A DNA stretch of 64,000 nucleotides, from contig OZ020488.1 of NCBI GenBank assembly GCA_963971405.1, positions 20,541,089 to 20,605,088 on the forward strand. Reading direction: 5' to 3'. Position numbers and translations under genes: made by a program. The notes under the pieces were generated by a model. It worked only from the letters and a program-made list of their open reading frames with translations, ran no database searches and had not been told where the DNA came from. Positions 512 through 54,322 of this stretch are shown in pieces. Position 1 is the first letter of the stretch. Each line of letters starts with the position of its first letter. This DNA comes from Psococerastis gibbosa (lineage: Eukaryota; Arthropoda; Insecta; Psocodea; Psocidae).

Positions 512-895
512 GGCGCCCATTCCACCGACCGGCTAGGGCTATTTACAAAAACGGTGACGTGATAGCAGACATTCAAGACTTAAGTGGCGTTTCCACCGAC
601 CTCGCATTGCTGAATGCAAATGACATTGACGGAAATTAGAATTTTTCTTTTTATAGAAATCTATTAAAATATTTGTATTTAACATATCCCATGACGCCAT
701 TTTTTAATTTTAGTTTGTTTGTTTGTGATTTTACTGTATGATCATTGATCAATTTTAACTATGGCATAGAGGAAAATAAACATTTCCGTCAATTCTGCAA
801 TGCGAGGTCGGTGGAAACCCCGCCTAAGTCTTGAATGTCTGCTACCACGTCACCGTTTTTGTAAATAGCCCTAGCCGGTCGGTGGAATGGGCGCC
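512..895. mobile_element. Family A foldback MITE (outer, nested host)
   Basis: This is a palindromic element flanked by TTA on both sides (509-511 and 896-898). The ends read GGCGCCCATTCCACCGACC and the reverse complement. The arms run through GGGCTATTTACAAAAACGG to the shared core GTGACGTGATAGCAGACATT and end in CAAGACT. A second element sits exactly in the central TTAA of the palindrome. The 3-bp TWA target duplication and short GGCG ends are typical of PIF/Harbinger MITEs; assignment to that superfamily is inference. Confidence 0.85.
584..824. mobile_element. Family A MITE nested in the palindrome centre
   Basis: This ~240-bp element is flanked by TAA at 581-583 and 825-827. Its arms (TTCCACCGACCTCGCATTGC and the near-perfect reverse complement) enclose an AT-rich centre containing TGATCATTGATCAATTTTAA. 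The centre matches, in reverse orientation, the inner element at 12121-12372. It replaces the loop of the outer element at 512-895. Confidence 0.85.
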
Positions 896-1198
896 TTATG
901 AAAAATTCGTCAGAAATCCAAGCTTTCTAAAAACTAAGACTATTTACCCGTCTGAGTTACGACCAATCTGTAAAATCTGTTTAGCGCACATTATCGTGTT
1001 TTTCTAGAGCAATAAAAGTGCAGGTGCAAAAAAAATATATATATTTTTTTTTTAATTGAATTTTTCATATTACAATTTTCCTATCTTTGCGGCTGTAAAA
1101 CGAGGAATTAATTATTTTATTCAGAAATACCCAGGGCAGTCTTGTTGACTAAATATTAAGAACTCATTAGAATGATAAATTGGTGTAATTACCTAACA

Positions 1199-1758
1199 GC
1201 AGCCTGATCATGGCGATTATAATACTGGTATTTATTTAAGGGCCAACCGGAGTCACCCATATTCCATTTTCTGTTCAAACTTAAATTTCTCATGAAATAT
1301 GGAACGCAGAACAATGAAAAAATACAGAGTCGCGAGAAGAATTTTTTCTCCTAATTTTAATATATAGTATGTGGCCTTAACTAACCCCAATTCGCCACAG
1401 TTGATGAACTCCTTCAACTTGAACTCCTGAGTGACCGTTATTTTTTGCGTATCAAGTTCACTAACTATAGCCGTTCGGTATTGATGATTGCAACATACTA
1501 TATATCAAAATTAGGAGAAGAAATTCTTCTTGCGACTCAGCATTTTTTCATTGTTCTACGTTCGATATTTCATGAGAAATTGAAGTTTACACAGAAATGG
1601 AATATCGGCGACTCCGGTTTACCCTTAATCCCCAGGTATTAAAAATATAAACAAACAAATTTTGAATAGGACTTTCCATTATAAAATTATTTTGTTTTCA
1701 ATTTTAATACCAGGGCATTAAATAAATACCGGTATTATAATCGCCATGATCAGGCTGC
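1199..1758. mobile_element. Long foldback element D1 (560-bp hairpin)
   Basis: The outer arms CAGCCTGATCATGGCGATTA (1199-) and its reverse complement (ending 1758) are nearly perfect over ~40 bp. A second pair of arms, 1240-1375 and 1490-1626, continues the hairpin at lower identity. The loop contains CGCCACAGTTGATGAACTCC, which resembles 32725-32760. No coding sequence is visible. This is a non-autonomous foldback DNA element; the superfamily was not determined. Confidence 0.8.
1627..1717. mobile_element. Mini-element with TTAA flanks inside D1 right arm
   Basis: This ~90-bp block is present only in the right arm of hairpin D1. It is bounded by CCCCAGGTATTAAAA and TTTTAATACCAGGG, an inverted repeat, with TTAA on each side. 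Related sequence occurs near 59875-59957. A TTAA target and CCC ends suggest a piggyBac-type MITE (inference). Confidence 0.6.
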
Positions 1759-2431
1759 AGGAACTACCTACAGAAGTTCAATAGATATTTAAGTGTCTAT
1801 TGTCTAACTAAACAGCTCCCTATTCGTCACCTGAGAAATTTTTTAGTCGATGAATTCCAATAAAATTAGCCTATAATGCCGGTTGTCGCTCAAAGAGTCC
1901 GCTGGTGATTAATAAACGGGATAATGTCCCAGAAATTCTAAAATAATATTTTCTGTCAAATTCTAGTTGAATGCAGCTCCCAACACTGTGTCGTCACATC
2001 TGACCTTGCCTCTATACACCTGTCCCAATTTTACACGTTTTTCATTCATTTTTGTAGGAATCTGGATATATACTGCTAAGCCTATTGTTAATATTCGACC
2101 ACTTCTATGGAATATAATCCTCTATCAGAATAAAATGGAATAAAATGTTTTGCAAACGCCACGGTCAAACATTTTCAATAACCAACATACTCTGTGAAAA
2201 ATTGTAAACAACCCTCAAGGCTGAGCTAGTATGTTCAGTTTCCCATAATAGCCAGCTAGTAAGGACCGGTTGCTCATTGGCTAAAACCTGAACTGACAGA
2301 AGTTGTAATGGCTAATTTTAGTTTCTAAGTTTTAAAAAAAATATTGCTATATATGTATGACGACTCCAAACAGTTTTTTTTTGTTGATACGTGACACTAC
2401 TACACTGGCTTCCACTGTCATGAAAACTTAA

Positions 2432-4114
2432 GAGTGTACAGCCCGTAGGAAATTGGCAACCCGAAATTTGTTACTTTTTATTATTTATTTAATTAACTAA
2501 GCATGTTATTAAAGATTTGGATCATCAAAGTTGTAGAAGACTACTAGAGGTACCGTCCTGGGACCAGTCCTCTTCTTAATATTTATTAACGACCTTTTAA
2601 AGCTTGATCTCGATTGCACCCTTTTGGGATTTGCAGATGACACGGTTCTTCACTTCAACAGTAAAACATGGGAAGAAACCTTTAATAAAGCAGAGAGGAC
2701 GTTACGTGTAGTTAAAAGCTGGCTTGATGAGAATAAACTTACTCTTAATATCGCAAAAACTGCCTACATACCCTTCTCTCTCTCACACGTAGGCCAACCA
2801 CCGCCACATCTCAGTTTAAAACTCCATAATAATTGCAACCTTAATCCATGCACATGTCAGATAATCGCAAAAACAAATACTATTAAATATTTAGGCGTTA
2901 CCATTGATAAGCATCTCAAGTGGCATGAACACATTCTCCTAACATCAAAACGAATTAGAAGAACCTATTACAAATTAAGGAAGCTAAGGTGTACACTTAA
3001 TGTTGATACTCTAAGACAAGTTTATCATGCTTTAGTCCAATCAATTTTCCAATATAGCATATTAGCCTGGGGTGGTGCTCATCCTTGCCATATATGCCCC
3101 CTAGAAACTGCTGTAAGAATAGCCATCAGGGTAGCTTTAGGGAAGCCTCGCCGCTACCCTTCAAATCTTCTTTTTAAGGAATTCAATGTCCTCCCATTGC
3201 CCTTGCTATATGCAAAACAACTTCTACTTTTCCGATTTAAAAGGGCAAAAACCATTCTTGGGCAAGGCGATTTCGTCCATCATAACATTAATACCAGACT
3301 TGGTACTGGACGCAACCTAAAAACTTTGAAACCGAATACGGAACACTTTATGCACTCGCATATGTATAAGTCTATTCCGTTGTACAATTCCCTACCGGAC
3401 AACATAAAAGACACCGTCAGCATAACAAGTTTCAGGACTCTTATTAACTACCTAATTTCTTCCAACCCTAATAACATCACGTCCTTACTTGGCAACTAGA
3501 GTTAATGAAAATTGGGATATATACTGTAACGTGCGGATGTTCTCTTAGTGTCGATTGTGAACCAATATTTTCATTTTTATTCTTTTAACGTACATTAATT
3601 CAGTTATTGCACAATTATTCTCTATTAACGTTTAAATTTTTTTTATATATTTATTTATTTATTACTTGTACTAATTTTCACTTGTGCTAATTTTTCACTT
3701 GTACTTTTGAAAGGGGGCCCAGCACGGGACTTTTCCTTTGGGCCCCTCCTCCATTTCTTTTTTAATATTGTAAATGTTGTTTTGATTTGATTTAATAAAT
3801 TTGATTTGAAATTTGATTTGACTTCGTGCATAATATAATAAGGTATTTATAGTTTTCGAAATTGTAGTTTTTTTTTATAAAATCGCTTTTACGTGAAAAG
3901 TTATTGTTTATAAAATATCTGCATGTTTATGAAAAAACTACAATTTCGAAAATTAAAAATATCTTATAATATGATGCCATGAAGTAGTCTTCTACAACTT
4001 TGATGAGCCAAATCTTAAATAACATGCTTAGTTAATTAAATAAAAAATAAAAAGGAATAAATTTCGGGTTGCAAAATTCCTAAATATAAATAAAATTCCT
4101 AAATTCCTACACTC
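2432..4114. mobile_element. Foldback element split by a LINE
   Basis: The left arm 2432-2545 (GGCAACCCGAAATTTGTTAC ... TTGTAGAAGACTACT) is the reverse complement of ~3985-4114. The inner arms 3816-3870 and 3925-3985 (TTTTCGAAATTGTAG and the complement) close the hairpin. The left arm is interrupted at 2545/3816 by a LINE fragment. Without the insert the element would be ~410 bp. It has no coding capacity. Confidence 0.8.
2546..3815 (+). mobile_element. 5'-truncated non-LTR retrotransposon (RT C-terminal part)
   Basis: An open frame runs from 2546 to the stop at 3497-3499 (~317 codons). It opens with a GTVLGPVLFLIFINDL motif and the catalytic GFADDT box, followed by thumb-region sequence with LGVTID and AWGGAH. 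This is the usual 3' half of a Jockey/CR1-type reverse transcriptase; clade assignment is tentative. A non-coding 3' tail ends in TTTGATTTGA repeats. The 5' end is truncated within the RT. The frame is uninterrupted, so the copy is fairly young. It landed in the left arm of a foldback element, with only a short possible ACT duplication. Confidence 0.88.
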
Positions 4115-4225
4115 ATGATCAAAGCTAGATAGATGTCTTTCGCAGTGTGGTTGATGCATTTAATTTGATAGAAATTTGATAACGTGTGCCTGTTAATTAA
4201 CTAAACCGTATAATAATAAAATATA

Positions 4226-4299: not shown

Positions 4300-4572
4300 G
4301 ATGTTGAGGTTGGAACATTAGATACCCTTTAAGTGCTCCCGTTATCAATTTCATTCATAATAGTGTAAATTTTATTATCTTTCATTCTAAGAAATGTTTT
4401 TCAAGTAATTAATAGTAAAATCAATAGCTAGTACGAGATGTTTGTATTGCTTGGTTACTTTTGTCAATATTTTAATTGTATATCTTACTGTACACTAACG
4501 CCAATCGGTGTTAGTCACGGCCACATACATGTATCAAAATGTAGAGGAGTATTTCTTTAAACCTACCTTTAG

Positions 4573-9189: not shown

Positions 9190-9329
9190 GGCCCAAATTC
9201 CACCGACCTCGTTTTTGATCGTGAGCGTGATATTGACGTGGTAGCAGACATTAAAGACAGTCTAAAAGTGTCTGCTACCACGTCAATATCACGCTCACGT
9301 TCAAAAACTACGTCGGTGGACTTTCCGCC
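9190..9329. mobile_element. Family A foldback MITE
   Basis: The left flank is TTA (9187-9189) and the right flank is TAA (9330-9332). The arms are GGCCCAAATTCCACCGACCT and its imperfect reverse complement, passing through GAGCGTGATA to the shared core TTGACGTGGTAGCAGACATT. The loop is short (AAAGACAGTCTAAAAG). It is a nearly perfect 140-bp hairpin. Confidence 0.85.
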
Positions 9330-11512: not shown

Positions 11513-14500
11513 GAGCTTCCATCCGCACTGGCGGGTCTTTGCGAGATCGTAACCGCAGGTTCTCGGCACACATTGTTGCCCGACGGGAATCGGTTCGGGG
11601 TGTCGACGCTGCCATCCGGCGGCCATCTTTGTCGACGGTCGTCGAGCGGGGTAGCTGGGGCTCCAGATGGGAATTCCTGCTGTCCTGTGTCGGTTTGTCC
11701 GTGGGCATCGGCAATGTTTGGCGGTTTCCCTACCTTGCTTATCAAAACGGAGGTGGTGAGTAAAATAATGCTTATTGTTTTGTTTTTTGTCATTGTTTTA
11801 GTCCAAGCAAGATTCAGAGAAGGAAGACTTGCGATCTTGAATAAAAACGTGGGATTCGTGCGATTTTTATGCCTCCATTTGTCTCTTAAACCTGTAGAAG
11901 TTATCAACTAAGTCTATCAACTAAGCTGGAGACGTATTATACGTGTGCCTACAGTATTCTCTGATAAATAATGATTGAAATGTTGTCATTAAATGTATTA
12001 ATACATAATGTATCTTGTATAAACTGAGCACAAATCAGTAACACTATTAGGCGGGATTTCCACCGACCTCTCATTGCAGAATTCAAAGACATTGACGTGG
12101 TAGCAGACATTCAAGACTTAGGCGGGTATTCCACCGACCTCTCATTGCCGAATGCAAATGTCATTGACGGAAATGCTTGTTTTATTCTATGCCATAGTTA
12201 AAATTGATCAATGATCATAGAGTAAAATCACAAACAAGCAAACTAAAATTAAAAAATGGCGTCATGGATATGTTAAGTACAAACATTTTAATAGATTCCT
12301 ATAAAAAGAAAAATTCAAATTTCCGTCAATGTCATTTGCATTCTGCAATGAGAGGTCGGTGGAAAACCCGCCTATGTCTTGAATGTCTGCTACCACGTCA
12401 ATGTATTTGCATTCTGCAATGAGAGGTCGGTGGAAACCCCGCCTTAGGAGTAGGCTATATATGCGGTAGTAAGTCCTACTGTTCTGTATGGAGCTTAGTA
12501 TAACATAAAATAAAATTAAAAAAAAATGTAAACTGGTATGTTTGTATTCTTTTAAATGTTATTAAGCACCTATTGTGTTTTGTACAATAATTACAATAAT
12601 TGCGAACTATACAAACAATATTGTTCAGTAACAGCTAGTATAGGACAGCGGCTAGTTTGTTATAAGCTTCCTACTGTATATAACATGGCTATAGCTTGCC
12701 TGTAATCATGATTTTAAATGTTCGAAGACATGTAATAGTCCTTTGGATAAGTAAGCAAAGGCTTTACTTTAAATCTAAAAGTTAACTAATGGGTTGCAGA
12801 CTAAAATGTTTAATGTGAATGAGAATTATCCAGGAGTGATTTTCCTTTCTCGTTTCGCTGTTATTCTTAACTGCGTTCTTACTCTTCCTTTGAAATGTAT
12901 TCAATAAAACAAAGTTGATTAAGTTCCTGTGTAATTCAAGTTCAATCTCAATTTAATCATCCTTCATCAAACAGCTTTCTTATTTTATTGTACTATCTGT
13001 CGCTGAATTTATATTGTGGGTTACTGCTGCTGTATAAGAAACTAAAGAATGTGTTTTGTTTTTTTTAGGTGCCTTTCTCATTCCGTACTTGATAATGCTT
13101 GCGTTGATTGGGAAGCCTATGTACTTTCTCGAATTAGCTGTAGGTCAGTTTGCAGGAGTTGGTCCTATTGCATTGTGGAACTGTTGTCCGATTATGAAAG
13201 GTAAGTAAGCTACCTTACCTACGACCTACTGTACCTGGTAATAATACTCCTATTTACATTAATTTTCTAGCTACCGGTACTTTAGGTTGCATGGATGTAT
13301 TTTATAAAAGTTTCAAGGGAGTACTCATTATAGCACTGTGTGCTGTGGCTGCAGTGTTTCCCCTGCATGCGTAAGGAACTAGACTAGAGAACAAGAACTC
13401 AGTGGCGGACTGGGACTTGAAATTGGCCCTGGCTCAGGTCAAAAAAGCTTTAGTTACAAAGTTAACTGTTTTCAGAATGCGGTTGTAAAACTTGTTATTA
13501 ACACAAATTTTATTTTAGTTTGAAATATGTTACATTTTTTTCCTTCGGACGTCCAGCCCCCAAACAACTATTTTTGGTCCGACACACCGGGCAAATGCCC
13601 GTCTGCCCAGTCCGCCACTGCTAGAACTAGGGACAGAAATCTAATAAGTTATGACTCACGAGAATTGTAGGCCTACAGTATTTTGAATGGTAAAAAAAAG
13701 GATTTTTATAATGTTTCTTCCACTACTGAAAATAAAAAAATCGGTAAAATCGTTATCGTAAATATCGACGTAAGAAATTAAACTGTGCTAAGCCTGTGAC
13801 ATGAATATGGTGATCTCACTAAACGGATTAGGCCTATTAAGGAAATCAAGTTATTTAGCTTAATTTCAACATTTTTATAGTGAAAAAGATTCTGTAGGTA
13901 TCCCTTTCCCCTTCTCTTCTCCGAATTGAAAAGGGATTACTCCAGATAAATTGCATTGTTAAATGATTCACCGAAAACCACGATATTTCTAGTTAAAAAT
14001 GAAGCACCGGTACCTACTTTTATGAGTGAAAATATTTGGGGAAAGGATTTGATGTAAGGCTTTAAGAACTTGTTATTTAAAATCACCCCGACCAATTGTC
14101 AATAGTATAATTTGCCTACTACAGTACGATGATTATTTACCCATCCCCAAAGCTGAAAGCATCGAAAGCTTGGGGAACTTGAATTGTTCGGATTTCAATT
14201 GCTGTAGGGATAGTCGGATGCTTCCTCAGATAGAACGTGGGACCGATTTTGAAATTGTAGAAAGTTTAATTGAAAGTCATCAGAGAAAATAAGACTGTTA
14301 CAATAATTAAAATCTGTTTGAGGTTAAGTAAGCAGGCGAGCGACAAAAAATTGCTGTGAAAATAGATTTATTTTTTTAATAATTTTTTTTTCTCAACCGG
14401 TACCCCCAGCACTGGGAGCATATAATATAAAGAATACAATAGTATAACAATAATAGTGTTTACCGGAATACTGCAATATATTCTTTCTTTCTCTCTTTTC

Positions 14501-17500
14501 CTTGTTCAGTATTACCTGGACAAGGAGCATATATTACAAAAATACAATACATAATCATACCATCCCGCATCCCCAAGCTAGCGCTTATTTGGGACAAAAG
14601 ACTCATACAGATACAGTGCTGCTGAACAAGGCTTAATAATTTATTTTTGTTATTTATTTATAATGTTTATTTTATTTTATTTTTATTTTATTTTTACTTG
14701 TTATTTTAATGTCAGTTTTCATTATTATTAACTCCCATTGACCAGCCATCTTTTTATACCCGCTTTTAACTCACCCATCTGTTTTAAATTTTTTCATTTG
14801 TGGAGGAAGTTCATTAAATATCTTTGGTATAAGTACTTTGTTCAATCTCTCTCCGTATTTGTTATATGTTATCTCAAACTTAAGCTTTTTTGGGTTTCTT
14901 GTATTGTACTTCCCTTAATCATCTATTTGGTATTATTAATAATAATAATAATAATAAAGTCTTTTTTGAAAAAAAAATAATGTTGATACAGCGAGATTAG
15001 GGCCTATGGCCCACTCTTTCACTTAACTGTAGGATCAACGATAGTTTAATTGAAAAATATAATTTTGTAAACTACAAAATTAAATTTAAATGCTTGTTCT
15101 GTAGGCAAATAAACTGCCATGCATGGGAATGCCAGGAATAAGTAAGACCTGGCTGGCGGCTTCCTCTGTATCGGATTCAACTTTCCGTAACTTTACCAAC
15201 GATGGTACTGTAAGTGCCACACTTAGTAGCTTGGTTTCTGAACTGAATTTAATTTTTCTAAGGCCGCGACTCTAAGCGATATGTTTCATTAATTTTTATT
15301 TAATTTATAAACATTTTCATTAAGTTAGGTATCTGTTTTTTTTCTGTTGCAGGCGTAGGATATGCAATGGTGACAGTTTCGCTGATAGTTTGTATTTATT
15401 ACAATGTGATTATGTCGTACACAGTGTACTATACAGTAGCTTCCTTCTCGAGCGAAGTGCCATGGAGTAAATGTGATCCGAGCTGGGCGGACCTGAGTAC
15501 GTGCTTTGTCCGTGGGGCCCAAAACTCAGCAAACCTCAGTCTTTCCAATGCTACGGAAAGTAGCAATAACCCCAAATGGGAAACTGCGAGTCTTCAGTAT
15601 TGGGAGTAAGTAACGTATAATATGGTTTCTCTCATTGCGCTAAAATAAAGCCAAAACATATTTTTTCACTAATATGAAAATGCGAAATATTTTTATACGT
15701 GGCGTCGTCGCGTTATAAGCTGCATTATTGTGCTCATATTCCAGCAAAAAATGCATCATAGCCGGTTAAACGATTTCTAACCGGCCCTCACCGGTTGTGA
15801 ATTTTTATTGGAAGGCTGCATGTGCTGGCACCAAAAAACAGCTCTGTATGAAAATGATTACGTAGCTTACCCGTAGGCAAAAATTTGGAAAAATACATTA
15901 CCATAGGTAGGTACGATTTGGGTGTAGCCCATTTGCCGCGTTAAAACAAAAGTATTGGAAGTCTTATCCCGAAATAAATCCCGGATAAGTGCGTGGTTGC
16001 TGAATGTTTACACAACCAGTCTGTGGCTAGTTCTACAAAGGTACAATTAGTTCTCGAAAAGGAAAACCGCTGGGTCGTCAGTTTGTGGTTTTGTAGCTTA
16101 CCCCAAGCGAGAGATTTTGCTTTTTGAAAGGGTGAATGGGCGGGCGCTTTTACCATTCTCTTCCACAAAACATAAAATCGAAATAAAGTGAAGTCACTAT
16201 TCTGGAAAATTTGATCTGACAGAATAGTGATGGGAAATTTTCAGAAGGAAAACAGCTGTTTCTCATCCGCCAGCCGCCATAGACCTAAAGGCCCTATGCT
16301 CATACAGTACATTAACTTTTCTTTTCTCAATTACCAATCAATGGTATCGTTATCTTTATCATAATTTATCTGCCTACTGTGGGTACAATTTATCAGAATT
16401 CGAAATAAAGTGAAGTCACAATTCTGGAAAAATTGATCTGACAGAATAGTGATGGGAAATTTTCGGAAAGAAAACAGCTTTTGTTTCTCATCCACCAACC
16501 AGCGTAGACCTATGCGTTCATTTTTTTTTTTTTTTTACACAATTGTATATTATTAACTTTTCCTTGCTCAATTACGAATCAATGCTGGTATCATGATATA
16601 CTGTAGGTATTTCCTAATTTCGTTCTTGCGTCGCATCAAAACTAAATGATCTGTATTTCGTATTTATTGTGCTTTTGACGAAAATACATACTACGGTACA
16701 TACACACAATGCGTAGGCGTACGAGTACGTTAGGTAAACCTGAATATTTCTACCGCTCAACCAAAGCCACGTTATTTCTCAATGTGTACGTATCCAGTTA
16801 TGATGATTCATTCAATAATATTGATAATCAGGAAGTTCATTTACAGACTTACAGTAGAAATGATTAATAAACGTTTTCCGATCTGTTATCTTAATAAGGC
16901 GGGGTATCCACCGACCTCTCATTGCAGAATGCAAATGACATTGACGTGGCAGCAGATATCATTAATAAGTCTTGAATGTCTGCTACAACGTCAATGTCAT
17001 TTGTATTCTGAAATGAGAGGTCGGTGGAAACCCCGCCTAATCTTATGTGTTCGAACATGCAAAATATGTTCAGTACCTATGTGTGGCACATGTATAGTAT
17101 GTACAGCACATGAATAAGCTAGCCGTTTATGATTTTGCCTTAATCTTTTTTGAATTTAAGTGCAATACAATTTTCCCCTTTCTTTCAAATAGAAAATTAG
17201 CAAAGCGTGACCCGTTAAAACTCTGAAAAGTCACGCCTCATCACACTGAGTTTCACTTCTATTTCAACGTTGCTCATATAAAGCCTGCCTTCTGTTTTGC
17301 AATTTGATATACTTTGACAACGCCCACTCCCTTTGACCTTTTATACTTTCTGTACTCTGCAATAAAACTAGGCTAGTACAGTATGCATTAAGTTTTTTTC
17401 AATTTCCGCCTGCAGCCCTGGACTTCTTGTTTGTTTAACGCTGGACATAGTGAATTATTTCATTGCCAAATTATTAATTAAACTACGTCTTACGTAGGAG

Positions 17501-20500
17501 AATTAGTATAGCTACAAAACAAAAAAAAGGCGACCAGGTGCTTGCTGTTGTATAATATAACCTTCAACTATGCTATTGACATCTTACTTAGGCGCTTATT
17601 CAATAGTCAATAGTAAATGTGGTATTGACGTGGTAGCAGACATTAAAGACAGCCGAAAAATGTCTGCTACCACGTCAATACCACATTTACTATTGACGTA
17701 GGTGGAATAAGTGCCTTACTAGTATTAAGATTTTTGGCTTAAGGTCTTCTCCATATCTTAAGGTTTCCCTTACCAGTTTTGGTAGGCAAACTTGGTTGCC
17801 AAAGGACCGTCTAAAACCGTTTGCCTTTTTCTTTTCTCATAATGATGCAGAAAGTACTTAAGAGTAATTGGTAAGTTAACTCCGTTTGATCGCACTATTT
17901 AAGGCTGTTTGATTTTAAGTTAAAATGTGAAACTGGTATCGGTAATTTAAAATTGAGCCGTAAGTTTTAAGTAATATTATTATTGCTCTTTACAGGAGGA
18001 GGGTACTTAATCTTTCAGATGGCATTGATTCCATGGGTCCTGTAAAATGGGATTTGGCCCTATGCTTGTTGTTTTCGTGGATTATAGTTGTTCTTTGCCT
18101 CGTTAAAGGGATCAAGACGTCAGGAAAGGTACGTTTCTCAAGCTTTTCCTCATTGTCCGGAAGCAAATGCTAAAATTTAACACTAATTATTTATGAATAC
18201 GAAAATACGTTCATGCCCATGCTCTTCTTTTTATGAATTTGGCCGATAGTATTCATTGGCCTTTCATTCTTGAAATTTCTTTTGCCCTTTCCATATTGTT
18301 CCTCTTCCTATGGCTTAAGCAAACGATACAGAAAGTGGGGATTCAAATGATAAAAAAACATTAAATATTATTTTAAAATATGACTGACCTTATAAAACCG
18401 CCATAGGCGCTTATTCCAGCTATGTCAATAGTCAATAGTAAATGTGGTATTGACGTAGGTGGAATAAGCGCCTTATTAGATGTACTGAAACAAATTGATG
18501 TAATTTTCAGGTAGTTTACTTTGCTGCAACGTTCCCATACGTCATACTGCTGATCTTGCTCGTGACAGGACTTATGCAGGAAGGAGCCTGGGCGGGGGTG
18601 CTTTACTTCATCATGCCTCAATGGGAGCAACTCCTTAATATCCAGGTACCGTTACATATTGACGTACATTTTAACATAAGCTTATTTCAGCATGTCGCAT
18701 CAACCGCAGGCATTCGCCAGTACGTATTTATATTTTCTTGAAAGATTGGTCCAAAGCTTCGATAATGTGGAAGAACTGATTACTTTCATTGCGGTTATAT
18801 GAACTTTCTGTAGGGGTTGGAAGCATTAGCATTTATAATGAACTTTATTGGGGAAAGATGCCTCCATATGGTGAACAGTATGTCGTATTGTACAGAATCC
18901 AGCCTTAAGCTCTAACAATTTCCTATGGTATACATACAAATTACCAATATAATGTTGAACACGAATTTCGCCCCGAATGAGACTCGAACACGGTTCGCTC
19001 GGGGGGTAGCCTATCCGAGTTTTGTACCACTTGCCGATTGATTGGATTGTTATCCCATGGACTAAGTTGCCGGGGATAGACCGAATTATTAATAATTAAA
19101 TAAATTATTAATAAATGTTAATACCGTTTGTACATAAAGATTTCTCTAAAAGTAGGGAAAGTAAAAATTAAACCAAACTGACTGCTGACTTATGTCAAAT
19201 TCTACTTTAATTTTTTCTTCTTGAAATACTATAAATCATGAATCCGCAGATTATTTTTTTTAAATTGTGACCCCTGAACTGAAGACCCAATATGTTCAAA
19301 ATGGTTTCCAAAAAGTTGCCTAAATTATCAAACTCGTCCTTTCACTCTATTGGAGCCCTGGATCTGCTCTCTTTTAGCTCTGATAATGTTTGAACTCAAT
19401 TGAGCTTTATACAAGACATTGTTTGAAACAAAAGTAGTGGGAATTGGAGAGCATGTAGCAAAGATAAATAATTCTAGCCTGCACACAGTTTTTTCATAGA
19501 AGTTTGAACAGTGCCGTACACTGCTAGCATCGGAAAACTCCGGTACTCATTACTATTCATTTTACTGTCTCATCTTGATATTCAGTAGTGAGAAATGTTT
19601 TCAGTGAACTTGAAACACAATTGTCACATTAGCAGTGTCTTTAGCCTAAAGTTATTCGAATGAATATGATTTTTATGTGTAATCTGTATGCTAAATTGTC
19701 AATTAAAATATACGCAAAAGACGAATTAACTTAATGATCACTTGGCCTACTTATTAGATTAGTTTTAAATATTGAGTACATGCCTTCTTTTCATTTGAGG
19801 AAAGGTAGACCTAGGCTCACAAAGTAACTTCGAGTCCTTCTAGAGTAATAGTGGATTGACTCGCATTGATTCATTTAGGTTAGCCTGAATTTGAAAAATG
19901 ATGCACGTAAGAGTAGTAATATACAAGTTAAACTGAAAAAACAATAACATAGAAGTACCCAACTAGCTTAGAGCTTACTTTGATTTGTACCGTATCCATA
20001 AATCAGAAAATGCTTTGAAGGATGCTTGAAGTGCGCAAGACATCATTTTTTGTGGGAGGGAGGGATGGTGGTGGTTATTACGTTATCACTGATGTGATAA
20101 CAGTCGATATATCGAGAAGGGAGACTCAAGGACGTTCCTATCGTACACTCAATCTTTCTTACCCCCTATATTGTACATTACCATTGTAACGAAGGTAGGA
20201 GAGATGATCGACTAAAAAAGCGCAGGCTGTTAAAATGAAGTTTTTCGATTTTTAAGTCTTTAAATGGAATATGAGTACAATTTTAGCTGAAGGACTATGG
20301 GATCATTCCGAAATTGTCAAAAGAATTTACAATAAATTTTTGTAGCTATTGTAGTATAATACTAGTAAGCTACATCCTAAGGTGCCCATTCCACATACGT
20401 ACAACGTCAACGAAAAATTGAAAAATGACGTCAAAATGACGTAAATTGACGTGGTAGCAGAATTTTTAGTATGTCTTTAATGTCTGCTAAAACGTCATTT

Positions 20501-23500
20501 TTCAATTTTTCGTTGACGTTGTACGTATATGGAATACCCCCCTAACTGAACTTAATGTTTCTTCTGCCCAGCTAGATTGTTACTAGTTACAGTCAGGAGT
20601 ATTTAACGTAGGTACTAGTATCTCTAGTGTCTAGCTTTTGGTTGCTTATTAACTATTACAAATATTAACTTATATTGTGTTCTTGTAGTTTTAGACTGCT
20701 GCACATGTGCATACGACTGCATAGACTAAATAGCCTACTTTTTGTGCACGTTTAATTTTTTTTCTCTTCTGAAAATGATTCTCCTCAGGTTTGGAAAGCA
20801 GCAGCGGGCCAGATGTTCTTTTCCCTTAGTGTGTCAATGGGAGGACTAATCATGTACAGCAGCTACAATGATTTCACTAACAACGTATACAGGTAAACTG
20901 AGCTGGATTCTCGTCTTTTTACGTCTCGTGTGGTAAATAATTAGACAACTATTATATAGAATGACTTTGTTTTAGTAAATTGAACTTGGGTACAAAATGG
21001 CTGGCCTAATGAGGCGTCATAATTGGCGCCATTATTCAAATGCACAACAGCCTTCTTCTGTAATGCTATCTATAAATTCTGTTTTGATGCATGGTGATCC
21101 GAGGCATTCCGAGCAGGTGTATGCTAATTTCTTTATTTCTTTAGACAATTTTTAATAACATAATTTATTTTGACTTTCATTGGCTTATAACCGTTAATAG
21201 AGCTCTTACATTTTTGGAGACTTTTCCAAGCAAATTTACAAGAACCGGTCCGAGTTTACTGGAACATGCTTTCCAATTTATCAACATTAGTAGATAGAGA
21301 ATATGAGTAATTTCATGGTAAATAATTTTCCTGTGGTTAAATTTCCGATATTGGGGGGGGGGGGGGGCTTGTTGTCCACCTGACGTCACTGGAGGTGAGA
21401 TAAATTCTAGATAGGTCAGACCAACCCATTAATTACCACACAGCAATAATGGCAGGGCACGCAATGCATTTGAGCGCGAATTTTCTATCATTTTTTCAAA
21501 AAATAATTTTTTATGCTTAACCAAATATTTTTTTGGGAAAGGAACCTATCCGGTTTCGTTACTCAATTTAACACCTAAAACATGCCTGAAGGTAAAAATC
21601 ATCAATAGAAAGGTTTCGCAGAAAAATTATTTTTTAGTCATTTTTCATTCAAATTTAGTGGTTTTTATTTTTTTACCCCCAGAAGCAAACTATCAAGGGG
21701 CAAGCGACCCCCCGCATTTTGTCAACATTAATGACGACTACAATATATGTGAATTTTAAAGAAATCGTTAAGCCGTTTTTGAGAAATAATTTTTTTAGAC
21801 GTTTTCTATGAGTTTTTTGAGAATAAACCCCCCCCCCCCCCAAATTGAGATAGCCCCAAATAAAAATAAAAAATGGTCCCGAGGTATGATTTTTGTAAAC
21901 CTACATGCTAAATTTCATCAAAATCGGCCGAGGAGTTTGACCGGAAAACGATGCACAGACAGACAGACAGACATTTCGTAAAAAACCATTTCGTAAAAAC
22001 TTTTTTGGATTCCCGGGACCTTAAAACGTGTAAATCCGTTGAAATCTCGGAATCGAAAATTTCGACCATCACAAAGCTTTCCTTATACAACGTATAAATT
22101 GGGAAGCAATATTCATATTAATAGTGACACGTTGAAATATAATTTACTCGGCAGATACGAGTCAGTAAGTACAAGTTGTACATGCAAGCAAAAAATTTAC
22201 CTCAACTCTTTATGTCGAATATAATAAGAGAGCTGCTCCATAGGTGCACAGACTTGTACATATTATAATATTTCACCTGTAGTGTGTGCTTGCTAATCAA
22301 TGAAGCCCTTCCCCTGTTAAAAGAACTCTTGTCAAATTTTAGTTTGCATAGTATAGGCTAATTATAACATACGGTATTGCAGTTGGAACTGATGACAAAT
22401 GTCTTAGAACTTTTATGTTTTTGTTAACTTCTGCTGCAGAAGGGTTTAAAAAAGGCCGCAGAAGGTTTGCAAAGAAACATCAGATTGCAGGTGCAGATTG
22501 CTTCATAGGGCTTTTGTAGACTTGTTTATTTAATTTAAAATTTTGCACGTACCATGCGGAAGCCTCGTGAGTTCGTTTTGGTTCTTAAAGACAGGTTCCT
22601 TAATGTCACCCCCTCCCCTCTATACGCGAACGATAATGGTTTACATTGGACTATTAAAAAAAAAAATTGATCAAAGTGCAGTGGGGTGCTCATAGGTCTA
22701 TTGAATAAAATTCTTGGAGGAATGGCTGGTAACGGTGAAGTATGGATGTAAACAGTATAAATTAACAGTGTGACTCGAACACCGTTTACAAACTGACGTT
22801 TATGTCTCTGCTCCCTCTTTTCTGCACTTTCTCACCAAGTGCGACGCATTGGCTCTGTTCTTGTGTCTTATATAAAAATTCTATCATTTGCGTATACGAT
22901 AAAATGCCAAGTCTCTGTTATATAGCTTACTATTTCTTTGTCCCTGTTGGGCCTTTGTCGGTATAGGTGGATTATGTGATAGGTCTAATTTTTACTATCA
23001 CACTCCCTGCAGACACATTCTTCAGTTTTCGACATCGGCTTCATTCCGAATAATGCGTATCATAATCACTAAGTTTATACAGAACATTACATTATTCAGA
23101 AAGGTTTGTAGTTGGAGGTATAAATAGGCCTAATTAAGAAACACGCTATCGACATCTGCAATGAGTAAGGTTCAGCCATGTCTGGACTTATTTTTAATTG
23201 AGTTTTCCTTTTTTTTCTGGAAAGAGTTCTTAGTTCAGAAATAAAATATCGTTCCAACCTCTATACTTCTTATTTTCGATGAACAGTTAGTAATGCTAGG
23301 TACTATAAAGTTATTAGGTAGGCTCGAGCTGAAAAATGGCGTGCCTAGCTAACACATCCATGTAAACCACATACGATAAGTTAGCTAACGAATACCATAA
23401 GGCGGCAATTCCACCGACCTCGTTTTTCATAATGCACGTGACATTGATGTGGTAGCAGACATCATTAATAAGTCTCCATATTATAACTTAATTTATAATA

Positions 23501-27852: not shown

Positions 27853-28380
27853 GGATCACCATAAAATAGGTTGGTTTGTGTTTTTTATTTAAATTAATAC
27901 TTAAGTCCTACATATTTAGTCCGTTCAAATTTTATACACCATATTATTTTAATTTTATTCCTATAATCTTTTCAAGAATCTGATAATTCAGTAAATTTCC
28001 GCACCAAATCAAAAAAATTCCTCGTGGTACCTCGTATGAAATAGTCCTCTGCAAATTGAACATAATCGTTATAATTGAGTTGCCTATTAGCAAAAGCAAT
28101 CCTCTCCACCCAGGTCGATTTTTCAGAAACCGCAAAAAACTGCTGTGCCGCAACGCCATGAGGAATAACATTACAGTTTTTAAAGTCAATTTTAACAGTA
28201 TTAGAATTGCTTTTGCGTCTCAATATCTGATTCATCGGATAGAGTATCGAAAAATAAAAAAAATGGCGCGAATATCTCAAAACTGAAAAAAATGGAGAGG
28301 ATTGCTTTTGCTAATAGGCAACTCAATTTAAGTATTAAATGAAATAAAAAATGTAAACCAACCTATTTTGGGGTGATCTA
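27853..28380. mobile_element. Foldback element G with insertion in one arm
   Basis: The outer arms GATCACCATAAAATAGGTTG (27855-) and CAACCTATTTTGGGGTGATC (ending 28379) pair over ~50 bp. The inner arms TTGAGTTGCCTATTAGCAAA (28075-28108) and the complement (28290-28325) pair almost perfectly. About 165 bp (27906-28072) lies between the two arm segments on the left only, so it is either an insertion or a right-arm deletion. It is non-coding. Confidence 0.78.
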
Positions 28381-38100: not shown

Positions 38101-41100
38101 ATAAAAATAAATGCGATTTTTTTTTTTATGATTCGCTCGAACAAAACTGCATGGAGGGCCATAAGGTAACGCACCTGCAGATTTGAGTATATATTTTATA
38201 ATATTTGTTGAACAAAAAGGTTCTCTTTGAATACTATTCAATACAATCATGAGATTCAAGCTCTCATAAAGAGAACTATTCAATAGTCGAACATATCAGG
38301 TTATCGGTAGAGATTTTTTTTTTTTTTAAATTGGTGTGTAACACTTCAAAAGCTTTGTTTCATTGGCAGCTAATCCTTCGAACGGGAAAATACTTAAACG
38401 TCCTAAGACAATGCGAGGCTGCACGAACTGGATCGCCTATTCCAGAAGTGAAGTATTCATATGCTGAGGACACATTTTCTGAATGTATTCGGATGGCCCA
38501 TGAAAGCGCTAGCTCTAGTCTCAGACAGCTAATGATTGATGTCGACCTTTCAGGCCATCTTCGTTCAGTTCGGAATTACCTGCTCTTGGCCCAGGTAGGT
38601 TACACAATTTGAAGTTTCATGACAAAACGAAAATGGTAGTATGAATGCTAGTAAGAAGAAAATTTTATAAATTTCTAGATTCAAGGAACGCACTAATAAT
38701 ATTTATAACAATAAATATTGCTTTGATTTTGTTCTATGATGACCCTAAAACTGTTCCACTGTAGTTGAAGACAATTAACTAACATTCAGAAAAATTTAAT
38801 TTTAATTTTGACATTGGAGCAGTAAATTCGTAAAAAGTGCAACAGATCGAAAATTTTAGCTAAATAAATAAGCAATGTCCACTTGTGACCTTAATGCATT
38901 AAATTTGAAATGGAACCCTCATAAGGCGGGGATTCCACCAACGTCAATAGTGGTAGTAAATGCAGTATGTAGTAAATGTTTTGACGTGGTAGCAGACATT
39001 TTTAGACATACTAAAAATGTCTCTGCTACCACGTCAAAAAGCATTTACAATCACTATTGACGTTGGCGGAATCCCCGCCTAAGTTTTGTGTATACAAACA
39101 CATGCAAAGTCAAAATCTGATTTGAAAATTTAGCATTGGAAATTTGCATGGAGAGGTGGGACTTGGGAAGGCATTACGGGAATATCTATTGTGCATTTGC
39201 AAACTTTTCTGGGCGAACAGTAACACAAGTTATCAAACATAGGTTATCATATAACTCAATTACCACTATTGCATTACACAGTGAGATACAATGTCAGTCG
39301 TTGTACTGCATAATTTGCCAGATCTAACAGATGTTCGGGGCGGCGACAATGAGCGGTAGGCTGTTTGGTTGGTTGAATTCAACGTCGTGTCAGTCCTCTG
39401 CAAGAAGTTGATAGCTAAGGTCTCGGCCCCTTCCGAAAATGTCTTACATAGACGCCACTGGTATTTCATACTAAGATCCGAATCTTTTAATGTTGTTGTT
39501 GGGTAAAATGTATGTATGCATGTTTGCCTTCGTTTTATTTCAGTCAAGAATACCATAACATTCCTCCGGAATTTGATTTCAGGGAGACTTTATGACGAAG
39601 TTTATGGATATGGCTGCTCCTGAATTAGATAAAAAAATTGATGATATAGTCCCATCTAGACTTCAAAGCCTCTTGGAATTAGCACTGCGCACTTCCTCGG
39701 CGAATAGCGATCCATATAAGGACCTTCTCAGTGTCGGACTCCAGCAAGAAACTGCATTGAGCCTGCTCCTTAAGATCGCCAATGGTCAAGAAGTGGGTGA
39801 CATAGGTGGGACCCTCGGCTGGGAAGCTGTTGCGTTTTCCTACAAGCCTCCGTGGCCGGTCTCGTTGGTACTGAATCGTAGTACACTCACCATTTATCAG
39901 CTCATTTTTCGTCACCTGGTGCGAACCATTTTTATTACCTGCCTACGATAATTCCTTATTGTTTGTTCTCTCAAGTGTACCTCTTACAAGCCTCAAGATG
40001 CACGTTTTCATATACTGTACTCATTAGTATATGCTCATAAGCCGATGTCTAGCTGTCAATGTAATGTTGATATCACACACATTAGTTGATACCTTTTAGG
40101 GAATAAAAATTATCATTAGCTTACAATTTTATTAACATAAAAAATACTCAATGTCTTTTCAATAACCATCTTTCTGTGATATCTGTGATACTCTGAAGTA
40201 CAATAATTGTTGGTTTATTTCAGGTGTATTGCAGATACGTCGAGCGTTTACTTTGCCGCGTTTGGCTGGAGCACAAACAGAGAGAGCTTTGGGCCGCATG
40301 GGACCTGAGGCAAAGAATGCTCTTATATGTGAGCAATCTCGAGTATTACATGCTTGTAGAAGTTATTGAGCCTCACTGGAACTTGCTTATGAAGCAGCTA
40401 CCCAATCTACGCGATCTCGATGAAATTCTTGAATGCCATTCAACTTTTCAGAACGACTGCCTCGTAAAATGCATGCTAACTAATCCGAAGCATTTTCAGG
40501 TAGGTTACAATAATTCACTGTGCATTTAATGAATATTCCTTGTAACAGGACAATCCGTGGGAGGTCACCACGCTTTCACAACTAACCACATCCCAAAATA
40601 CAAAGTTGAATAAAGAAAACATTACTGACTCCAATGAAGCCGCCTGTGTGGCATATTTATTGATGGGTACAAGTGAACAATTGAGGGAAAACTGTTCTCA
40701 CCATTTTTTGAATGTTTTCCAAATTAAAAAAAATCTAGTTGAACCCGAATTGTATAATGTAAATTTTGACTGTATTACTTGATACCTGTAATTTTCCAGG
40801 TACTGAATACGTTTCTACGCAAGTGTGTCGAGTTCTGTAAATTTATGGATGCCTGCGGCCTCGTGGAGGCTTCACCCCGGCACAATGCAAAAGGGACTGC
40901 AATAGAGTTCACTCCCGCAGAGTCTTTCTCCGCCAAGATCAAGGAATTTAATAAGAGTTTCACACAACATGTCCGCTACTTATTCCATACAATTCGTGAA
41001 TCTGACGGTGTTCGACGTAGTGACAAGCTCACCGATATGCTCTACCGGCTAGATTTTAATTCTTACTACAAGATGTGTGTAGACAGACAGCAAAGTCAAG

Positions 41101-51943: not shown

Positions 51944-53329
51944 TTTTGTAAAGTTAGGCTTCTAAAGAAGTAAAATAATACTGATTAATGAACAGGGAAT
52001 AATGAATACGATTATAGACTATAACCGATTGAAAATTCAAATTGAAACTTCTCTAGACTGTAGTTCACTAGTTGTATTCATGTGTACAAACAAAAAGCAG
52101 AAGAGAACTGTTATTTACTCATTTGTACCAACCCAACCAGCCCACAATACCAAAAACAAATCCCGCCCAAAAGTTAGCTTTGTGATATTCTTCGTATATA
52201 TTTAATTAATTAATCTAAGGTAGCTGGGCGTAGCACTTGTTTCTTTTTCAACAAATAGCAATATAAAATATTTATATTTAGGAATTTTTTCCTAAAATAG
52301 GTTAGTAAACCTGATTACCACACCGGCAAGGAAGCCGCGGTTCGCGCGCCCCGCGGTGGATAACTTGATTCGAATCAATCGAATCATTGAATCATTCTCT
52401 CTAGTTTCATGAAGTATATATTTAACATTAACACAGGCGATTTTCGCTTAGAGAAGGTTGTACCAGAAATAACAGCGCTATTAGCCCATATTTAATTGAA
52501 ATCATTTAGGTGCCGTAATTTAAGGTTTGGTAAAAATTAAATTCTTAGTACAGTTTTACGGTACAAGATTCACCTAATATGTTAATATGTTTTTAAAATA
52601 TGCGTATGCCTAGTAGCTAAGAATAAAATTTAAAAAATGTTGATTTATCATTGAAATGGAATGTTAGTGCTGAAATGCTGTGAATTTTGGAACCATGCCT
52701 GGAGTGAGATAAAAGCCTTGTAGCTGGAAACGTGTGGATGTGACAGCATACAGCGTCTTGGCCCATGAATCTGTCTCTCTCACTCAGCTCAGTCGCGCCG
52801 CGCGCTTTGTTCGGGAGGGAATGTGTGTGTTTTCCATCAGTGACATTGGAAATTCAAATGCACCTTTGTCTATGTACCGGGCGCATTCTTCCCTTATTTT
52901 GTGAATGAGGTAGGTACCTCCTTAACTACACATAACAGTCAATAGGTTGTAGTTGTGGTCCTAATGTTTTAAATCGCCTAACCTCATATCTTTCGTTAGG
53001 CAAACCACCGGCTACCAGATTCAGGCGCGGCTTTGTATTTTTTTTTAGGTAGTCCTGAGTTTCGACGTCACGAAGTTAAATTAAATTACTGGTCAAATAG
53101 CTTAGAGTATGGGCATTATGCACTAAAAGCACCTTTTCCCTGATGAGACGTCGTGACTTTGCATAGGTTTTACTTCTTTAAAGCCTAAACGCTCCTGCCC
53201 TGTGTGGTGGTAGATATTTTGCCCACCGCGGTAATAAAATAAAACCGGTTAGCCTAATATCTTATGTATTGTCAGGACGTTTCAGACCGGGGGAGGGGGG
53301 GGGGGTGGACCAGGCCATTGTTGTCATGA
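51944..53329. other. Upstream of LIG4; no gene recognised
   Basis: This holds the LIG4 promoter side. A G/C-rich, CpG-containing patch at 52320-52370 and another at 52790-52820 could be regulatory or a non-coding first exon of the gene to the right. No conserved exon was seen. Confidence 0.4.
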
Positions 53330-53600
53330 GTCATGAGTGCCCTGGTACGGTCCTTAGGTCTAGCGCCAGCAACCCGAACACTGACTGCTGACTCCATCCT
53401 ATCGTTTCTTCGGCGGTACCTTATCGCCGGGGGGATTTCGTCAGTCTGCGCGTGTGTTCACTGTTCGGTGTTCGACTTTTTTGTGTTTTCGGTGTTCAAC
53501 TATAAGAATGTTACAAGTGTCTTGGAGTGATAATTTCACCCACAACAAACAGGCCGGACCCTGACCGTCGCGTCGTCCACTCGTCCATCACCATGTATGG
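53330..53600 (+). other. Unexplained GC-rich block
   Basis: Noticeably richer in G+C and CpG than its surroundings, with GTGTTCGGTGTTCGAC-type short repeats (53456-53505). No stable protein or RNA identity. It could be an untranslated first exon or promoter of the NOS1AP homologue, or the 5' part of a mobile element. Confidence 0.3.
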
Positions 53601-53609
53601 GCTAGTTCG

Positions 53610-53835
53610 CTAGTAGTTAAGAGATGTAGAGTAGGTAGTGGTACGGACTCTGACTTTCACCCGAAAGGTTGTTGGTTCGAGTTCTAAACTTCTTACATTT
53701 TCTGGCCATGCTTCGGAGGGCATGTAAAGCAGGTGGTCGGCCTTCCTAGTTGAGTGTAAGAGAGGGCTTTATAGCACTAGCTCAGCTAGGTTGGCCTAGT
53801 AGGACCTAATAGAATAAAAAAGTACTTATTTTTAA
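53610..53835 (+). mobile_element. tRNA-derived SINE, copy 3
   Basis: Contains CACCCGAAAGGTTGTTGGTT, GGCCATGCTTCGGAGGGCAT and AGCTCAGCTAGGTTGGCCTA, then an A-rich end. Same family as 4573-4796. Confidence 0.85.
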
Positions 53836-53989
53836 AAAGGTTTTAAAATTCCTTTTTGTTTTTATAAGCTTCAGCTTGCTTTTTCAGTAACTACAGTGCT
53901 ATAGCCTAGTTAGGCTATTTGAAAATCATGCTCTTTTCAAGTCGGCCAATATATTTCTTTGCTTATTTTATGTGTCCCGTTTAATAATA

Positions 53990-54322
53990 ACAGTAAAGTT
54001 ACTCTGTTTTGCCCTTAAAACATGTCTGAAGTTAGGAAGCATTAATAGAAACGTTCCATTTTTCATTAGGCGGCTACTCCACTTGTCAATTTTTCTTCAA
54101 TTATTCATGCACAAATGACGGAATAATGACAAGTGGAATAGCCGTCTTATGAAAGTAGTTTATTTGCCCACAATTCGACGGACAGACAGACATTTCGTAA
54201 AATCCACTTTTTGGGTCCCTAGGGTCTTAAAAAGGGTAAATCCATTGAAATCTCAAAATCGACAATTTCGGACAATCATCGCAAAGCTTTCCGTATATTA
54301 ACGTTTAATAAAGTAAAGCAAA
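53990..54322 (+). repeat. Family B 3' part, interrupted by a MITE
   Basis: Begins within family B (AAACATGTCTGAAGTTAGGA) and runs to the usual end near AAGTAAAGCA. It includes GACAGACAGACATTTCGTAA. A family A derivative at 54069-54146 interrupts it. Confidence 0.75.
54069..54146. mobile_element. Short family A derivative within family B
   Basis: TTA flanks (54066-54068, 54147-54149). The ends GGCGGCTACTCCACTTGTCA and TGACAAGTGGAATAGCCGTC are inverted repeats. The GTAGCAGACATT core is absent, as in 18416-18472. Its position shows that family A was active after this family B copy was in place. Confidence 0.8.

What the first reader, a model, noticed from the sequence alone, without database searches (positions are those of the whole stretch)
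512..54146. A modular family of TWA-flanked palindromic MITEs: constant core, exchangeable arms
Twelve sites (512, 9190, 12050, 16898, 17591, 18416, 20381, 23401, 29074, 38925, 54069, plus two nested copies) share GGCGn ends, a TTCCAC step and mostly TTA/TAA 3-bp target duplications. Ten share the core TTGACGTGGTAGCAGACATT. The ~20-40 bp between end and core differs completely between subtypes: ACCGACCTC..., AATAGTAAATGTGG, ACGTACAACGTCAACG and CGGCTAGGGCTATTTAC. Both arms of one copy always match each other. This suggests arm replacement followed by palindrome-correcting conversion, or a core kept for a function such as transposase binding or dsRNA formation. The TSD and ends fit PIF/Harbinger MITEs; the modular structure is the unusual part.
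Basis: partly seen in the sequence, partly recalled or inferred. Interest (0 to 1): 0.72.

Follow-up and report, generated by a model that had tools for sequence, protein, structure and literature searches.

The report
Mini-transposons with fast-changing mirrored arms
The window holds eleven copies of a very large family of short palindromic mobile DNA pieces whose ends and inner core stay nearly constant while the stretch between them changes quickly and in step on both sides, which lets one watch how a mobile element remodels its own ends.

Summary
The repeats are real: 11 sites, 9 with the core on both arms. The core is genome-wide (7,181 exact copies). The "completely different" arms are not unrelated: the window's four types are joined through intermediate mid-arms by steps of at most 0.25. 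Nor do arms always match: 20 of 107 sampled copies have clearly different arms, including a repeated hetero-armed subfamily. Arm swapping is not needed, but something specific does happen to the arms. A nested "composite" gives an internal yardstick: between its two main branches the outer arms differ at 34 of 84 sites and the rest at 11 of 294, with intermediates. Mid-arms are periodic at six bases (lag-6 z = 10.3), and units within an arm resemble each other. The nested junction is mirrored: 6,915 exact mirrored flanks against 1 original flank, so palindromy was restored after insertion. Best reading: PIF/Harbinger-like MITEs with fixed tip and core and a fast-turning hexamer array kept symmetric by arm-to-arm copying. 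The mobilising transposase was not found, and what drives the turnover is inference.

The parts
512..895 (.). Composite MITE, T13 outer arms (CGGCTAGGGCTATTTAC), core on both sides, inner MITE at 583-824, TTA/TTA duplication
   Evidence: arm identity 1.00 over 45 bases
583..824 (.). Inner (nested) MITE of the 512 composite; the CAAGAC flank is on both sides (mirrored)
   Evidence: limits computed by hand from the alignment
9190..9329 (.). Simple MITE, T9 arms (GTTTTTGA.CGTGAGCGTGATA), core 0 and 1 mismatch, flanks TTA/TAA
12050..12443 (.). Composite MITE, T12b outer arms (CTCTCATTGCAGAATTC/GCAAA), exact core on both sides, TTA/TTA duplication
12121..12372 (.). Inner (nested) MITE of the 12050 composite; the CAAGAC flank is on both sides
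   Evidence: limits computed by hand
16898..17037 (.). Simple MITE, T12 arms; its loop CAAGACTTATTAATGATATC is the un-nested form of the composite's insertion site
17591..17715 (.). Simple MITE, T2 arms (AATAGTAAATGTGG), exact core on both arms, TTA/TTA
18406..18472 (.).
   Evidence: core 11 and 12 mismatches
20381..20542 (.). MITE with T16 arms (ACGTACAACGTCAACG), core 2 and 3 mismatches, TAA/TAA
23401..23619 (.). MITE with T11/T8-like arms and a long loop, core 2 and 1 mismatches, TAA/TAA
29074..29213 (.). Simple MITE, T11 arms, core 0 and 1 mismatch, flanks TAA/TGA
38925..39079 (.). MITE, T3/T4-like arms, left mid-arm longer than right, core 0 and 3 mismatches, TAA/TAA
54069..54146 (.). Coreless MITE of the CTTGTCAAT type, sharing only the tip, TTA/TTA

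Best explanation
This is a very large family of PIF/Harbinger-like palindromic MITEs. Each arm is read as: constant tip GGCGnnnWTTCCAC, a short array of type-specific units of about six bases (mid-arm), constant core TTGACGTGGTAGCAGACATT, then a small loop. SHOWN: TWA duplications; a chain of arm types; lag-6 periodicity; units within an arm more alike than units across types; weak divergence of the core between lineages although it decays like the mid-arm inside a lineage; outer arms of the composite changing about ten-fold more than its interior, on both arms and with intermediates; a nested junction present almost only in mirrored form; some lineages spreading with unequal arms. INFERRED: (0) the composite goes back to one insertion (same site, same inner element; independent insertions at one TTA are not excluded); (1) source copies regain symmetry when one arm is copied onto the other (template switching or gap repair across the hairpin), a lineage-level event rather than routine repair of resting copies; (2) tip and core are kept because transposition needs them; (3) the hexamer array is the part read by the element's accessory DNA-binding (Myb/MADF) protein and turns over as partner proteins diverge, which gives fast, paired, unit-wise change.
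For: Genome-wide core, 0 in reversed control. Identical TWA flanks in 32 of 40 (S3) and 39 of 46 (S2) copies whose pattern forced TWA on both sides, where 50% is expected. Chain of arms; medoid spanning tree mean edge 0.267 against a null minimum of 0.384 in 40 shuffled sets. Periodicity lag 6 z 10.3, lag 12 z 4.2, lags 5 and 11 negative. Units within an arm 4.50 of 6 identical, first units between types 3.07; 3 of 5000 permutations. Core distance only 0.074 to 0.099 while mid distance goes 0.044 to 0.52 in 50 tip-ascertained copies. Composite T12 vs T13: outer arms 34 of 84, rest 11 of 294, Fisher 2e-16. Intermediates L125, L174, L178, L179. Mirrored flank 6,915 exact against 1 original; 14 composites mirrored and 2 plain among the 16 with both flanks read; the plain insertion is L076. 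That ORF1 (Myb-like) protein binds Harbinger TIRs: passages of PMC2836001.
Against: No autonomous element with these ends was found, so the binding role of the hexamer array is untested. In S1, where flanks were not forced, they are identical in only 31 of 59 copies, 27 of them TWA. Symmetry is not required for spread: 20 of 107 copies have unequal arms, and in the ACAGTG-loop subfamily 6 of 12 are hetero-armed in one orientation; the GTTTTAGC/GTTTCAGC core variant is on the same side in 15 of 15 carriers. Private changes shared by both arms of single copies were only 2, both in one element, of 24 and 22 (17 elements), a weak test. The largest edges of the full arm tree (0.41, 0.40, 0.39) are no closer than shuffled sequences, so a few rearranged arms are not securely linked. 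Arm and loop distances correlate only moderately (r 0.32), leaving room for recombination. Outer mid-arms vary 1.4 to 3.2 times as much as the inner centre inside a group, so some mutation-rate effect is possible. Hexamer types were chosen and typed by hand.
Confidence: 0.55

Rival explanations
1. Arm replacement: recombination or template switching at the core swaps in unrelated arms, then conversion makes the two arms equal.
For: Outer arms of the composite differ about ten-fold more than its interior. Elements with two different arms exist, and arm combinations Q/P and Q/Q share one loop.
Against: The window arm types are linked by intermediates. Composite intermediates carry mixed T12/T13 states: L125 15 of 23, L178 17 of 27, L179 16 of 27, L174 4 of 13 outer markers T13-like. 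Short-looped palindromes with the exact T13 core edge: 2 in the genome, both with composite-like loops (no matched positive control was run), against 3,025 exact T13 arms. Arm and loop or core distances correlate.
Confidence: 0.2
2. Ordinary neutral divergence of old subfamilies, with purifying selection on tip and core only.
For: Graded chain, correlated arm, loop and core distances, core constrained between lineages but not within them.
Against: The composite's interior, with no known function, changed at 3-6% of compared sites while its outer mid-arms changed at 43-50% over the same descent, which a single neutral rate does not give. An interior deletion in T13 is not in that count.
Confidence: 0.15
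3. Interior spread: old arm lineages repeatedly receive a young interior by conversion between homologous cores, so arms look old and interiors young.
For: Would also give constant cores with matching arms; in Galileo, copies with TIRs of one subfamily and interior of another are described (PMC3573991, passages).
Against: T13 arms look confined to composites. Of 6 interior substitution markers, L125 has 4, L178 2, L174 2 and L179 1 in the T13 state, so interior and arms drift in the same direction; six markers are few.
Confidence: 0.15
4. Array slippage: mid-arms are short tandem arrays that mutate fast by slippage, without selection.
For: Hexamer periodicity and length differences between mid-arms of about one unit. 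Outer mid-arms vary somewhat more than the inner centre inside a group.
Against: Inside a group the outer mid-arms vary 0.036-0.081 against 0.015-0.097 in the other regions apart from the tips, far from the ten-fold gap between groups; slippage does not by itself make new unit sequences on both arms.
Confidence: 0.15

Closest known systems
PIF/Harbinger (Tourist-like) MITEs, e.g. mPing
   Same: 3-bp TTA/TAA duplication, short non-coding elements with terminal inverted repeats in thousands of copies (TTA duplication of mPing and the two-protein requirement in passages of PMC2836001).
   Different: Here nearly the whole element is palindromic, with a conserved core next to the loop and a fast-changing hexamer mid-arm; no mobilising transposase was identified.
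Galileo (P superfamily) of Drosophila mojavensis, PMC3573991 (passages read)
   Same: Long inverted ends, subfamilies defined on the ends, chimeric copies with two different TIRs, recombination among copies proposed.
   Different: Galileo's 12 chimeric copies lack matching target duplications; here hetero-armed copies recur in one orientation and 5 of the 6 Q/P copies have identical TWA flanks (TWA was forced for all six), so they probably moved as units.
Quasipalindrome correction / inverted-repeat arm homogenisation by template switching (PMC8604942 passages; PMC8794818 abstract and start of introduction)
   Same: One arm templates the other, giving paired changes and restored palindromes.
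   Different: Here the mirrored tract includes the flank and duplication of a nested transposon, and the mirrored form exists in thousands of copies.
Subterminal hexamer repeats bound by transposase, as in Ac/Ds (recalled, no call)
   Same: Repeated six-base motifs behind a short terminal repeat.
   Different: In Ac/Ds, as I recall it, the motif is constant within the family; here the unit sequence differs between arm types and changes together within and between arms.

Membership tests
PIF/Harbinger-type MITE | 3-bp TWA target duplication | tested here: met
   Identical in 32 of 40 (S3) and 39 of 46 (S2) copies whose pattern forced TWA on both sides (50% expected), p 2e-4 and 2e-6; unforced S1 31 of 59 identical, 27 TWA; 8 of 11 in the window
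PIF/Harbinger-type MITE | Terminal inverted repeats, short, non-coding, high copy number | tested here: met
   GGCGnnnWTTCCAC ends; 482 near-full-length and 180 shorter exact-end elements (length classes overlap slightly); 7,181 exact cores. Non-coding judged from length only
PIF/Harbinger-type MITE | Mobilised by a PIF/Harbinger transposase that shares its ends | tested here: inconclusive
   At least 150 DDE_Tnp_4 and 113 MADF matches (scored candidates capped). In 10 six-kilobase loci no matching pair of these ends encloses the transposase: L129 has one tip, L131 has two weak and unlike tip matches, one inside an ORF. 30 shorter loci did not reach both ends
Foldback-like palindromic element | Nearly the whole element is inverted repeat | tested here: met
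   Arms up to 126 bases at 94% complementarity in the window
Arm homogenisation by template switching | Paired identical changes on both arms | tested here: met
   At lineage level: the T12 to T13 change gives the same mid-arm on both sides and nested flanks are mirrored
Arm homogenisation by template switching | Paired changes private to single copies | tested here: not met
   2 shared changes, one element, of 24 and 22 rare changes in 17 elements of two clusters (34 of 500 permutations as high); a weak test
Arm homogenisation by template switching | Inversion of the loop between arms | tested here: inconclusive
   0 inversions in 15 carriers of the one-sided core variant; one mirrored pair L136/L138

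The most novel reading that the evidence does not exclude
The mid-arm is a fast-evolving recognition array: hexamer units that change together within an arm and between arms, tracking the DNA-binding specificity of successive Harbinger accessory proteins, while tip and core stay fixed. Re-mirroring of one half onto the other is how each new specificity is installed on both ends at once, and amplification follows mirroring.
Probability: 0.25. Interest if true: 0.75.

Novelty: new variant of a known kind. Interest (0 to 1): 0.5.

Why it matters
How the two ends of a transposon change binding sequence without losing mobility is usually inferred from a few families. Here one genome holds a graded series of arm types, an internal yardstick (the composite), two unmirrored nested copies beside thousands of mirrored ones, and a hetero-armed subfamily. 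This makes two questions directly testable: what drives rapid turnover of subterminal sequence, and whether palindrome restoration precedes amplification.

Tried and rejected
The partner transposase: the 375-aa DDE_Tnp_4 family looked promising because it carries these ends, but its MITE is a passenger nested at one fixed place. A Harbinger-like locus L129 has one tip but no partner end. A MITE-like match 4 kb from a transposase (C1:37671973) was set aside because its reading direction points away from the transposase, and its stretch could not be fetched. An ORF-like start in the composite interior ([20 protein letters not shown]...) gave no Pfam match. Local duplication as the source of core sharing is excluded. 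Constraint on the core alone is not enough, because the composite interior is as slow as the core. Species not identified: the mitochondrial COX1 looks arthropod to me by recall only.

Dropped rows: 18 core hits in 15 loci had no recognisable pair of ends. Of 173 distinct elements, 119 passed the core and length limits and 107 entered the Mantel and arm tests. S1 was ascertained on an exact core, S2 and S3 on exact ends; S2 is enriched for shortened copies and 46 of its 50 listed elements were fetched; S3 is 40 of the 50 listed, the other 10 being already in hand. In some searches the S2 label also covered L173, L174 and one further element in L148; one search takes them out. The first places listed by the tool lie at the start of the contig order, so the samples are not random. 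The T13 negative had no matched positive control.
Full report
What is there. The window lies in a 409-Mb genome of 68 contigs, at C13:20541089-20605088. I re-read the eleven sites. Nine carry the core TTGACGTGGTAGCAGACATT on both arms with at most 3 mismatches (18 core arms; 0 in each of 3 shuffled windows); two are coreless. Flanking TTA or TAA is identical at 8 of 11. The sites 512 and 12050 are composites of 384 and 394 bases with a second MITE inside. The exact core occurs 3,590 + 3,591 times in the genome and its reversed control 0 times, so the sharing is not a local duplication; the window is about six-fold richer than average (7 against 1.1).

Samples. S1: copies around the first 100 listed exact cores (loci L001-L008 and L045-L119); 18 core hits without a recognisable pair of ends were dropped. 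S2: 46 of the 50 elements listed for an exact-ends pattern that excludes full-length ones (L120-L124, L133-L172). S3: 40 of the 50 elements listed for a second, longer exact-ends pattern, taken from the printed matches; the other 10 were already in hand. After removing duplicates there were 173 elements with the window's own, 119 simple ones with both cores, and 107 used for distance tests (S1 52, S2 14, S3 36, window 5).

Target duplication. With TWA forced on both sides by the pattern, the two flanks agree in 32 of 40 (S3) and 39 of 46 (S2), where 50% is expected. In S1, not forced and with older copies, 31 of 59 agree, 27 of them TWA. This fits PIF/Harbinger.

Arms are graded, not unrelated. 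From 215 arms of 134 elements I took 147 distinct mid-arms (between tip and core). Single linkage joins 137 of 147 at 0.25 normalised edit distance and all at 0.45. The five paths computed, which join the window's four types, never need a step above 0.25, whereas 60 shuffled mid-arms had no neighbour in the real set closer than 0.345; the link to T13 rests on one intermediate, L174. The largest edges of the whole tree (0.41, 0.40, 0.39) lie in the range of shuffled sequences, so a few arms are not securely placed. With 36 medoids the spanning tree's mean edge is 0.267 and its largest 0.41; in 40 sets with shuffled middles the lowest mean and lowest maximum were 0.384 and 0.467. Arm distance correlates with loop distance (r 0.32), core distance (0.27) and tip distance (0.22), each 0 of 2000 permutations.

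Arms do not always match. Mid-arm A and B distances correlate strongly across elements (r 0.77), but 20 of 107 elements have arms more than 0.3 apart, and the own partner arm was nearest or tied in only 34 of 107. Some of the 20 are deletions. A true hetero-armed subfamily with an ACAGTG loop has 6 Q/P, 5 Q/Q and 1 unclassed of 12, Q always on the same side of the loop; 5 of the 6 Q/P copies have identical flanks (arms sorted by a motif rule of mine). The GTTTTAGC or GTTTCAGC core variant sits on the same side in 15 of 15 carriers.

Core. In 50 tip-ascertained elements the core differs by 0.074 between near neighbours (mid 0.044) and by only 0.099 between distant types (mid 0.52). So inserted copies decay evenly, but the core hardly changes between lineages.

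The composite as an internal yardstick. The inner MITE sits in the TTA of the loop CAAGAC-TTA-TTAATGATATC seen in the simple element 16898. One locus, L076, shows the plain insertion: ATATCATTAA + TAA on one side, CAAGAC + CTA on the other, and two different outer arms; L094 is a second, more decayed case. I checked 16 composites in which both flanks could be read: 14 (512, 12050, L045, L060, L062, L075, L079, L095, L101, L112, L125, L173, L178, L179) have the CAAGAC flank on both strands with at most 2 mismatches, and 2 (L076, L094) have it on one side and the exact original flank on the other. Where intact, the mirrored copies read TTA on the left and TAA on the right of the inner element, that is, inverted rather than directly repeated. 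Genome-wide the 21-base mirrored flank has 6,915 exact matches and the 20-base original flank 1. In the first 100 listed places 7 pairs belong to one element by their spacing, so roughly 6,400 composites have at least one exact junction; this is an extrapolation. One mirroring event followed by amplification would explain it; I cannot count the events, nor exclude more than one insertion at this TTA.

Fast outer arms. Composites fall into T12 (CTCTCATTGCAGAATGC) and T13 (CGGCTAGGGCTATTTAC) outer arms. Comparing group majorities (9 and 5 sequences), outer mid-arms differ at 14 of 28 and 12 of 28 sites, outer tips at 4 of 14 and 4 of 14, and everything else (cores with junctions, inner arms, inner centre) at 11 of 294; Fisher p 2e-16. 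A deletion in one inner arm of T13 is not in this count. The two T13 mid-arms are the same sequence, so the change went to both arms. Within groups the outer mid-arms vary 0.036-0.081 and the other regions apart from the tips 0.015-0.097 (inner centre 0.025), so this is not simply a mutable stretch, although a two- to three-fold effect is possible. Intermediates exist: L125, L178, L179 and L174 have 15 of 23, 17 of 27, 16 of 27 and 4 of 13 outer markers in the T13 state. Of 15 interior markers 9 are the deletion, which these four lack; of the 6 substitutions they have 4, 2, 1 and 2 in the T13 state. The T13 arm has 3,025 exact 35-base matches, yet only 2 short-looped palindromes with its exact core edge exist and both have composite-like loops. 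So T13 arms seem to have arisen within the composite lineage.

Hexamer arrays. Over 27 medoid mid-arms self-identity peaks at lag 6 (0.432 against 0.260, z 10.3) and lag 12 (z 4.2), with troughs at 5 and 11 (z -5.2, -4.0); some types (T1, T12) peak at lag 7 instead. Shared ancestry inflates these z values. In 14 types written out by hand, the first two units within an arm share 4.50 of 6 letters, first units of different types 3.07; 3 of 5000 permutations reach this. An example is TGCAAG-TGCAAA (L174) against GGCTAG-GGCTAT (T13).

Arm-to-arm copying. It is seen at the level of lineages (mirrored junction, paired arm change) but hardly in single copies: 2 shared rare changes, in one element, of 24 and 22 (17 elements in two clusters, 34 of 500 permutations as high). 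The known mechanism that fits is template switching between inverted repeats, which homogenises arms (PMC8604942 passages; PMC8794818 abstract and start of introduction). Galileo is the nearest transposon I found with chimeric ends (PMC3573991 passages).

Partner. At least 150 DDE_Tnp_4 and 113 MADF matches exist (scored candidates are capped), including Harbinger-like transposase and companion frames (L125, L126, L130, L132). In ten six-kilobase loci no matching pair of these ends encloses the transposase: L129 has one tip without a partner, L131 two weak tip matches that are unlike each other, one of them inside an ORF. The role of the hexamer array as a binding site for a Myb/MADF accessory protein is inference, resting on the report that ORF1 protein binds Harbinger TIRs (PMC2836001 passages).

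Literature. Five searches bearing on palindromic, nested or chimeric MITEs and concerted arms listed no paper that I recognised from title and start of abstract as describing this family or this combination; only open-licence PMC papers were searched, the lists were capped, the sequence itself was not searched as text, and most listed papers were not opened.

Noticed in passing
L009-L029 (G000, 375-aa DDE_Tnp_4 transposase loci): Transposon family of nearly identical copies (98.7-99.6% to L012) that carries a T16-type MITE nested at one fixed place behind the transposase in 17 of the 18 loci printed (L029 lacks it): the MITE hitchhikes.
   Followed up: partly
window 54069-54146; L139, L147, L149, L153, L159, L164, L168: A second MITE group sharing the GGCG...TTCCAC tip and TWA flanks but without the core (CTTGTCAATATTCCGTCATTTGTGC...). 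It shows that the core is not needed by every element with this tip.
   Followed up: partly
L108 (G000:C1:8571550-8572550): Core and right end of a MITE repeated three times at 144-base spacing (core places 8571858, 8572002, 8572146).
   Followed up: no
composite interior, e.g. within window 583-824, minus strand: The inner MITE holds an ORF-like start ([20 protein letters not shown], my reading) that is well kept across copies; no Pfam match. It may be a remnant of the parent element.
   Followed up: partly
window 1268-1597 and 27854-28378: Other long inverted repeats (143 bases at 82%; 51 bases at 86%, with a perfect 36-base pair inside) not matched to this family.
   Followed up: no
L040-L042 and further COX1 matches: 43 matches to mitochondrial COX1, most of them nuclear fragments, one long one on C14; L042 has a pair of these MITE tips near its fragment.
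   Followed up: no
G000 PF13359 hits with 384-aa frames: About 36 DDE_Tnp_4 matches with the same score (127.2 bits), scattered over the chromosomes, suggest a recent burst of another transposon.
   Followed up: no
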